Shown: positions 38,366 through 42,722 of the stretch, one piece after another | Numbering within the stretch: position 1 is the stretch's first letter | Layout of the letters: each line of letters opens with the position of its first letter | From: Candidatus Jettenia sp. AMX2 | GTDB lineage: Bacteria; Planctomycetota; Brocadiia; Brocadiales; Brocadiaceae | Assembly: GCA_030583665.1 (NCBI GenBank) | Contig: CP129469.1 | Location: forward strand, 248,001-312,000 | Reading direction: 5' to 3' | DNA length: 64,000 nt | Translations under genes and position numbers: made by a program | The notes under the pieces: model-generated | Databases searched by the model: none | What the model was told of the DNA's origin: nothing | The model's input: only the letters and a program-made list of their open reading frames with translations

Positions 38366-38962
38366 CTAACTGCCTGGCGGGAAGAGTTTGAGGATTGTAA
38401 CGGCAACGCCTACCGTACCTACTACAATACCAAAAATTTTCACTAAGAGATCGGTTTGAGATGCCCTCATGCGTAATTCAGAAGCATTAATTTCCTTATG
38501 GAGATCTCTAAATTGGTTGTTTACGTCTTTAAATTGATCATGTATAGTTTTGAACTGTCCGTTGACATCCTTGAATTGATCATGTACTTCTCTGAACTGA
38601 ATATTGACCTCTTTAAACTGTTCATGCACAGTTTTGAATTGGCCGTTGATATCTTTAAACTGCTCATGTACATTTTTAAATTGATCGTTAACACCTTTAA
38701 ATTGGCCGTTGACATCTTTAAATTGTTCATGTACATCCCTAAACTGGACGTTTACATCTTTGAATTGGTCATGAATTTTTTTAAACTCATTACCAAACTC
38801 GATCCGAAGTTTGTCAATTTCATCTCTGATAAAATCCTTCAGGTATTCATGACTGGCTACCTGGGCAAGTTCTAATGTTTCTGCCAGCACCTTCGCCTGC
38901 TCATGGCTGAAACCGGCAGATTCAAACTTCTTGACATTTTCCAGTTCTTCTGTAATAGGCAT
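38366..38962 (-). CDS. heptad-repeat coiled-coil membrane protein (DUF1640/CCDC90-like)
   Basis: The 198-residue protein has an N-terminal helical part (AGFSHEQAKVLAETLELAQ), then 13 near-identical 7-residue repeats of the form QFKDVNx/QFKxVHE (residues 66-156) and a C-terminal membrane helix (about 174-194, LLVKIFGIVVGTVGVAVTILKLF). The plan matches bacterial DUF1640 proteins related to mitochondrial CCDC90/MCUR1. The repeats would form a long parallel coiled coil. Alone between a radical SAM gene and tsaE. Confidence 0.8.
   Translation of the reverse strand: MPITEELENVKKFESAGFSHEQAKVLAETLELAQVASHEYLKDFIRDEIDKLRIEFGNEFKKIHDQFKDVNVQFRDVHEQFKDVNGQFKGVNDQFKNVHEQFKDINGQFKTVHEQFKEVNIQFREVHDQFKDVNGQFKTIHDQFKDVNNQFRDLHKEINASELRMRASQTDLLVKIFGIVVGTVGVAVTILKLFPPGS
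38495..38767. repeat. 13 tandem 21-bp repeats encoding the coiled coil
   Basis: On the minus strand each 21-bp unit encodes QF(K/R)xVxx. Units alternate loosely between Asn and His at the sixth position, giving a rough 42-bp super-period, which suggests growth by two-unit duplication. Confidence 0.85.
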
Positions 38963-39045
38963 AGGTTTATTATACGGTTTATTATTCCAATGTCAAATGA
39001 AACAGGCTGGGAATCACATCTTAAATAAGGCACATTTCCCATTAA

Positions 39046-41700: not shown

Positions 41701-41916
41701 ATGTTTGACAGAATTACCTTTGATTTAAAAATTATGGGTGGACGCGCATGTATTAGAGGGATGCGGATCCCTGTATCCGTCATCGCAGGACAAATAGCCC
41801 ATGGCGCCTCTTTTGAAGAGATTCTGGAAGGTTATCCGGATTTGGAAAAGGAAGATATTCAGCAAGCAATAGAATATGCGGCATGGCTGGCCCAGGAAGA
41901 GGTTCATTCAATATAG
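41701..41916 (+). CDS. DUF433 (VapB45-like) antitoxin
   Basis: The 71-residue DUF433 protein has the family layout ITFDLKIMGGRACIRGMRIPVSVI with a winged-helix-like C-terminus (YPDLEKEDIQQAIEYAAWLA). Such proteins usually precede a PIN-like DUF5615 toxin gene. Here no intact toxin follows; a possible scrap lies at 41964-42036. Confidence 0.88.
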   Translation: MFDRITFDLKIMGGRACIRGMRIPVSVIAGQIAHGASFEEILEGYPDLEKEDIQQAIEYAAWLAQEEVHSI

Positions 41917-41963
41917 ATCGTTTGTCAGCATTTCTTGCTGATTCCATGAATGCCCCTGAGAAG

Positions 41964-42036
41964 GTGCAGTCGTTATCATTGAAGAATCACGTCATCGCAC
42001 AGGTATTTTTCCATTCGAAGTTCAGGAAGGTAGCTT
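41964..42036 (+). pseudogene. possible remnant of a DUF5615 PIN-like toxin
   Basis: In the gap where the toxin partner of the DUF433 antitoxin is expected, one frame reads GAVVIIEESRHRTGIFPF, which resembles the C-terminal GAVVxxEexRxRxRxLP of DUF5615 toxins. It is preceded in frame by a stop codon and has no start. The match is short, so it is only suggestive. Confidence 0.35.
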
Positions 42037-42327
42037 ATGACAGTAAATAAATTGCTAAATGAAAAACGTGAAGAAATCCTGCATATAGCAGAGAAGCACG
42101 GCGCATACAATGTCCGCATCTTTGGGTCTGCCACACGGGGAGATTTTACGGAAGAGAGCGATATTGACCTGCTGGTAGAGGTTGGAGAGCAAACCAGCCC
42201 CTGGTTTCCCGCCGGGTTAGTGGATGAACTTCAACGTTTACTTGGCCGTCCGGTAGATGTGGTCACAGAGGACGGCCTCTATTGGTTGTTACGCCGGAAA
42301 ATTCTTAAGGAGGCAAAACCATTATGA
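42037..42327 (+). CDS. mntA: MntA-type minimal nucleotidyltransferase antitoxin
   Basis: MntA neutralises HepT by adding AMP groups to it. The 96-residue protein has the full catalytic motif GS-x10-D-x-D (GSATRGDFTEESDID) followed by LLVEV. GGAAGG precedes ATG. Its stop overlaps the hepT start as ATGA, the usual coupling for this pair. Appears intact. Confidence 0.93.
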   Translation: MTVNKLLNEKREEILHIAEKHGAYNVRIFGSATRGDFTEESDIDLLVEVGEQTSPWFPAGLVDELQRLLGRPVDVVTEDGLYWLLRRKILKEAKPL

Positions 42328-42722
42328 AGAAAGACCCTCGAATTTATCTTGCCCATATTCTGGAGTGCGCTGAGAAGATCGAACGGTATATCAAGGGCGG
42401 CGAAAAGGCATTCTTCACCGATACCATAATTCAGGATGCAGTAATACGGAACTTCGAGGTCATTGGCGAGGCAGTGAAGCGCATTCCGGCAGACCTTCGT
42501 CAACAATATCCGGATGTACCGTGGGATTTAATGGCTGGCTTTCGGGACGTGTTGATCCATAACTACGAGGGGGTTGATCTGAAACGGGTATGGAAGATCG
42601 CTAAACATGACCTGCCTCCGGTAAAAAAAGTTGTTTCTGCCATATTGCCTCCGCTTGCCAGACTTGAGCAAGAATTGGCCGGTGAAGAAAATGCGGGCGG
42701 GAAGGGAGGTGAGTTAATATGA
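42324..42722 (+). CDS. hepT: HepT-type toxin ribonuclease
   Basis: HepT (HEPN/DUF86) is the RNase or tRNA-targeting toxin of the MntA-HepT system. The 132-residue protein has the R-x4-H-x-Y motif (RDVLIHNY), whose tyrosine is the AMPylation target, and the helical HEPN fold. Full length. Its stop overlaps the start of the truncated DUF499 gene (ATGA), so the toxin-antitoxin pair was part of a larger operon. Confidence 0.93.
   Translation: MKKDPRIYLAHILECAEKIERYIKGGEKAFFTDTIIQDAVIRNFEVIGEAVKRIPADLRQQYPDVPWDLMAGFRDVLIHNYEGVDLKRVWKIAKHDLPPVKKVVSAILPPLARLEQELAGEENAGGKGGELI

What the first reader, a model, noticed from the sequence alone, without database searches (positions are those of the whole stretch)
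38366..38962. Coiled-coil protein built from 13 near-identical 21-bp units
The units are nearly alike in DNA as well as protein and alternate Asn and His, so the coil seems to have grown recently by tandem duplication, often two units at once. Copy number probably differs between strains and sets the length of a membrane-tethered rod. The family is related to mitochondrial calcium-uniporter regulators.
Basis: partly seen in the sequence, partly recalled or inferred. Interest (0 to 1): 0.5.

Follow-up and report, generated by a model that had tools for sequence, protein, structure and literature searches.

The report
Anammox membrane rod with adjustable stalk
This gene appears to make a small membrane-anchored rod protein whose shaft is built from repeated seven-residue units; relatives in anammox bacteria keep the same two ends but differ widely in shaft length, and in this copy the repeats look old rather than newly made.

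Summary
The ORF and its repeats are real: 198 aa on the minus strand, with 14 heptads (13 good) of the form F-K-D-V-N/H-x-Q. They are not near-identical in DNA: units 1-13 average 68%, third codon positions 45%. Synonymous codons agree no more than codon usage predicts (180/325 against 175.6 expected, p=0.37). This array is old and kept by selection on the protein; recent growth is not supported here, though the same measure does flag arrays in relatives.

The protein has a conserved head, a coil stalk and a C-terminal membrane anchor. 25 of 62 Brocadiales genomes encode relatives; 35 of 40 measurable copies are 85-120 aa. Head-to-anchor distance spans 21-135 residues, mostly in coil-compatible steps. 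Two relatives with heads 92% identical in DNA differ by 99 residues (nine 11-mers).

The head is homologous to CCDC90/DUF1640 heads, but this protein scores below the Pfam cut-off and the family's neck motif is missing, so I call it a divergent variant that works like that family. A consensus sigma-70-type promoter ends at the ATG (predicted leaderless mRNA). Patchy occurrence and an unsupported tree suggest horizontal transfer. Strain variation could not be tested.

The parts
38366..38962 (-). whole ORF, 198 aa head-stalk-anchor protein
   Evidence: the start is supported by the family's shared N-terminus and by the promoter position
38855..38962 (-). head, residues 1-36, predicted helical hairpin around G17-F18
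   Evidence: conserved in 21 aligned family members; helices 5-15 and 20-36 in a low-confidence model; homologous to CCDC90/DUF1640-type heads; coordinates
38843..38860 (-). VASHEY, the place where a neck would lie; strict beta-layer motif absent
   Evidence: 0 of 57 family segments carry the motif; the model breaks between helices at residues 37-38; that this is a diverged neck is inference
38492..38785 (-). stalk, 14 heptads, residues 60-157
38384..38449 (-). C-terminal membrane anchor, residues 172-193
   Evidence: highest 19-residue hydropathy 2.34 at residues 172-190; conserved
38991..38996 (-). -35 box TTGACA
38969..38974 (-). -10 box TATAAT, 6 bases before the ATG (16-base spacer)

Best explanation
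A tail-anchored head-stalk-anchor protein. A conserved N-terminal helical head is held off a membrane by a continuous alpha-helical coil of about 125 residues (about 18-19 nm if fully helical), of which the 14 heptads contribute about 15 nm; the C-terminal helix anchors it. The stalk acts as a spacer whose length changes in evolution by duplication of coil-compatible units (7 residues here, 11 in several relatives), while head and anchor stay fixed. In this gene the duplications are old: synonymous sites are saturated, and the heptad and the 14-residue Asn/His pattern are held by selection on the protein. Shown: ORF, repeat, saturation, shared ends with variable stalk, head homology, promoter. 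Inferred: oligomer state (trimer, by analogy with CCDC90B), topology (head on the cytoplasmic or matrix-like side), which membrane, and that length itself matters.
For: Relatives in 25 of 62 Brocadiales genomes share both ends. Head-to-anchor distance in 40 of 57 segments takes the values 21, 25, 32, 36, 38, 39, 43, 45, 46, 50, 54, 72, 93, 130 (this one), 135; the 11 distinct values under 60 cluster in helical phase, p=0.0045. L076 and the long L082 gene have heads 92% identical in DNA and distances 36 and 135. L073 and L082 arrays share codons far above expectation (48/60 = 0.80 against 0.36; adjacent L082 units 59/71 = 0.83 against 0.43), while the window array does not. Model: helices 5-15, 20-36, 39-163, 169-193. 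Head-only profile comparison: probability 97.4, E=1.2e-11, score 48.2; 0 of 60 column shuffles exceed 17.5.
Against: Two distances (38 and 45, genes L077 and L084) do not fit sums of 7 and 11, and the phase test ignores relatedness. Lys and Asn/His codons are shared more than expected (45/56 against 30.2 and 30/36 against 20.2), Phe codons less (38/78 against 53.7), so some memory of duplication may remain. The model has few sequences and low confidence (mean pLDDT 72, pTM 0.30). No function is shown.
Confidence: 0.7

Rival explanations
1. Recent, hypervariable repeat: the array is still growing and shrinking by slippage, and length differs between strains.
For: Tandem arrays are clear; units 4 and 7 share all 6 codons at their 6 identical residues, p=0.039; relatives show recent growth.
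Against: No overall excess of shared codons (p=0.37); third-position identity only 45%.
Confidence: 0.12
2. No duplication at all: coil constraints drove unrelated heptads to look alike.
For: Synonymous sites carry no overall signal of common descent between units.
Against: Phe, Gln and Lys are kept far beyond what a coil needs, and the Asn/His alternation is ordered (p=0.004); relatives demonstrably duplicate units.
Confidence: 0.1
3. Accessory gene of integrative elements: its main role is with mobile DNA rather than the host membrane.
For: 10 of 51 loci have a tyrosine-integrase-type neighbour, 8 a Dam-type methylase, 7 an HTH protein, 6 all three (one representative of each named by Pfam). 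Patchy occurrence, 9 rows with in-frame stops.
Against: The other loci, the window among them, showed no such integrase cluster within the few kb fetched; no relative in viral contigs or phages.
Confidence: 0.15

Closest known systems
CCDC90-like / DUF1640 family (PF07798; MCUR1, CCDC90B, yeast Put6/Put7)
   Same: N-terminal head, coil stalk, C-terminal membrane helix in the same order; head homologous by profile to short DUF1640-type proteins of the same order, whose profile in turn finds the CCDC90B crystal construct 6h9m at E=1.3e-4.
   Different: Window protein 19.3 bits against a cut-off of 33.5; beta-layer neck motif absent in 0 of 57 segments against present in 8 of 10 short DUF1640-type proteins. 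The direct PDB searches did not list CCDC90B.
Hendecad and heptad stalks of other anammox head-stalk-anchor proteins (for example L062, L065, L131, L132)
   Same: Repeated 7-, 11- or longer units between a head and a C-terminal hydrophobic helix (read by eye).
   Different: Other head sequences; several carry the ATK-type neck.
Designed coiled coils sc-apCC-4 (8a3k)
   Same: Best PDB sequence match of the repeat, E=2.2e-5, through the Q-hydrophobic-x-x-hydrophobic pattern.
   Different: Designed protein; the match is coil composition, not ancestry.

Membership tests
CCDC90-like / DUF1640 (PF07798) | Pfam curated score of 33.5 bits | tested here: not met
   Window 19.3 bits over residues 10-193. 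Ten relatives scanned: 8 match below the cut-off (16.5-32.2), 2 do not match at E<=0.01. One relative, G061:C35 (L073), passes at 36.8 when its pieces are summed. Six short DUF1640-type proteins scanned also fall below it (25.8-32.4), so the cut-off separates poorly in this order.
CCDC90-like / DUF1640 (PF07798) | head sequence | tested here: met
   Head-only hhalign to ten short DUF1640-type proteins: probability 97.4, E=1.2e-11 for a single comparison; 0 of 60 shuffles reach the score. Those proteins' profile finds CCDC90B 6h9m at E=1.3e-4; the link to CCDC90B itself is indirect.
CCDC90-like / DUF1640 (PF07798) | beta-layer neck motif [aliphatic]-A-T-K-[polar]-[DE] (passage of PMC4786415) | tested here: not met
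   0 of 57 family segments, fragments included; 8 of 10 short DUF1640-type proteins have it.
CCDC90-like / DUF1640 (PF07798) | coiled-coil stalk followed by a C-terminal membrane helix | tested here: met
   Heptads, model helix 39-163, hydropathy 2.34 at 172-190.
CCDC90-like / DUF1640 (PF07798) | trimer | not testable with these tools
   Structure tool folds single chains; the PDB entry 6h9m lists 3 chains.
MCU regulator in the functional sense | a calcium uniporter (PF04678) in the same genome | tested here: inconclusive
   0 of 62 genomes, but the search rang in none of the 14 control genomes either.
recently grown tandem repeat | unit copies share synonymous codons above chance | tested here: not met
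   180/325 against 175.6 expected, p=0.37.

The most novel reading that the evidence does not exclude
Anammox bacteria carry a family of portable molecular rulers: single genes transcribed from a strong promoter straight into a leaderless ORF, spread between lineages partly on integrative elements, in which a constant head is set at a chosen distance from a membrane (possibly the anammoxosome) by adding 7- or 11-residue coil units. In this member the alternating Asn and His rings could give the rod a second, chemical role such as metal or pH response.
Probability: 0.15. Interest if true: 0.65.

Novelty: new variant of a known kind. Interest (0 to 1): 0.35.

Why it matters
Head-stalk-anchor proteins are conserved from prokaryotes to mitochondria, but why their stalks differ in length is unclear. 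Here nearly identical ends with stalks of 36 and 135 residues give natural pairs in which only length differs, so the idea that length sets function becomes testable. The case also shows that an eye-catching repeat can be old: synonymous sites, not the look of the repeat, tell its age.

Tried and rejected
Direct PDB sequence searches with the window protein (31 listed at E<=1) and with the short-form profile (7 listed at E<=10) did not list CCDC90B. Pfam, NCBIfam and PADLOC matches of the repeat are generic coil matches and were not used. The fold search with the 97-aa model gave no match at E<=0.001, as expected from its low confidence (mean pLDDT 60). Synteny around the radical SAM gene: among 30 loci from 33 Brocadiaceae genomes only the window's own has the gene and tsaE beside it, but most loci show only about 1.5 kb of flank or less; L106's radical SAM neighbour is only 26% identical and not the same site. 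No relatives in viral contigs (29 pattern matches, none confirmed) or phages. Literature: 'head-neck-stalk-anchor' found no paper; DUF1640 found 10; anammox with leaderless found 4, none on the subject by title; three further searches listed nothing on this family in anammox bacteria. The founding paper of the family (Adlakha 2019, Structure) is not held; I saw only its entry in a reference list, and what I say of trimers and architecture beyond that is recalled.

Antisense ORFs: 38498-38875 (+) and the neighbour cluster c1 look like mirrors of the family gene (read by eye), and they displaced some family ORFs from the display.

Full report
What is there. The window lies in a closed 3.46 Mb genome. 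The nearest named relative of the gene is from Candidatus Anammoxibacter, order Candidatus Brocadiales. That contig has the same length as contig C5 of G036, a genome of the same order as the window. The ORF at 38366-38962 (-) encodes 198 aa. It has a head (1-36), 14 heptads (60-157) and a C-terminal hydrophobic helix (172-193).

How alike the units are. Units 1-13 average 68% DNA identity (48-95%), and by codon position 76/82/45%. Where two units share an amino acid they share the codon in 180 of 325 cases; random draws from the codon usage of six neighbouring ORFs give 175.6 (p=0.37). By column the picture is mixed: Lys and Asn/His codons are shared more than expected, Phe codons less. Scans for the best matching block gave p=0.039 for single units (units 4 and 7) and 0.46, 0.885, 0.545, 0.789 for blocks of 2, 3, 4 and 5. 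In relatives the same measure gives 48/60 = 0.80 against 0.36 (L073), 209/320 = 0.65 against 0.42 (L082), 32/49 = 0.65 against 0.42 (L071) and 8/10 against 0.55 (L108). Those expectations use the window's codon usage and no p-value was computed for them. So the window array is old at the DNA level while the protein pattern, with 12 of 13 Asn/His switches (p=0.004), is kept.

The family. A profile of 21 members finds matches in 25 of 62 Brocadiales genomes, up to 7 per genome; the other genome of the same genus has none. In a sample of 392 genomes of the phylum 20 match, of which 18 are in this order and 2 are weak (E 1.6e-5 and 4.4e-4). Nine rows contain in-frame stops. Of 57 segments 40 have both a recognisable head end and an anchor; 17 were dropped, mostly fragments. 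35 of the 40 are 85-120 aa. The head-to-anchor distance takes 15 distinct values from 21 to 135. The 11 values under 60 cluster in helical phase (p=0.0045 against random integers, not corrected for relatedness). The values 38 and 45 fall outside sums of 7 and 11; they come from two related genes that differ from each other by 7. The clearest pair is L076 and the long L082 gene: heads 92% identical in DNA over 48 codons, distances 36 and 135, a difference of nine 11-mers. L099 and L106 differ by one 11-mer. The window's 130 exceeds the 32 of its Anammoxibacter relative by 98, which is 14 heptads net.

Relation to known proteins. PF07798 (CCDC90-like) matches residues 10-193 at 19.3 bits, cut-off 33.5. 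Of ten relatives scanned, 8 match below the cut-off and 2 not at all; one other relative passes when its pieces are summed (36.8). Short DUF1640-type proteins from the same order (A6) align with the family profile at probability 97.6. The head alone gives 97.4, and none of 60 shuffled controls reaches its score. The A6 profile finds human CCDC90B (6h9m) at E=1.3e-4. The family itself did not find CCDC90B in the PDB. The neck motif described for DUF1640 (passages of PMC4786415) is in 8 of 10 A6 proteins and in 0 of 57 family segments. The window has VASHEY at a comparable place, where the model breaks between helices; a diverged neck is possible but not shown. No MCU gene was found in 62 genomes, but that search had no positive control. 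I therefore say that it works like a head-stalk-anchor protein and do not file it as a member of PF07798.

Promoter. Upstream of the ATG stand TTGACA, 16 bases, TATAAT and 6 bases. Of 42 family starts with 60 upstream bases, 12 have such a promoter ending at the start (up to 3 mismatches), 6 of them perfect, including the window; none of the 12 has a Shine-Dalgarno-like motif, against 17 of the other 30. Of 136 background ORFs 6 pass, none with fewer than 2 mismatches; background start codons were not curated. In the whole window, 6 sites match with at most one mismatch, 2 perfectly, and only this one leads into a long ORF. A leaderless mRNA is predicted, not shown. None of the ten A6 genes has this arrangement.

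Mobility. In one search, 10 of 51 loci have an integrase-type neighbour, 8 a methylase, 7 an HTH protein, 6 all three; Pfam on one representative of each gives Phage_integrase, MethyltransfD12 and HTH_17. Two copies in G012 differ by one residue and have the same kinds of neighbours. In a tree of 37 head-plus-anchor sequences the window gene groups with L112 from Anammoxibacteraceae, apart from most Brocadiaceae copies. The alignment is short and no support values were printed, so this is a hint of transfer only. The window copy has no such neighbours: its flanks are a radical SAM protein, TsaE, and a protein with AIR-synthase domains (probably ThiL).

Verdict. The repeat is real, the dating is wrong for this copy, and the general idea (stalk length changed by tandem units) is right for the family. 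Interest is moderate.

Noticed in passing
38969-38996 (-): Consensus sigma-70-type promoter ending at the ATG, predicted leaderless mRNA, shared by part of the family.
   Followed up: partly
L093 and L094 (also L077, L078, L084, L096): Family gene beside a tyrosine integrase, a Dam-type methylase and an HTH protein: an apparent integrative element recurring in several Brocadiaceae genera.
   Followed up: partly
L062, L065, L131, L132: Other head-stalk-anchor proteins of the order with strongly repeated 11- or 18-residue stalk units.
   Followed up: no
41701-42722 (+): DUF433 gene followed by ORFs that look like a nucleotidyltransferase/HEPN pair (by eye, not tested): possible toxin-antitoxin genes.
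   Followed up: no
38498-38875 (+): Antisense ORF of 125 aa, a mirror of the heptad repeat and probably not a gene.
   Followed up: partly
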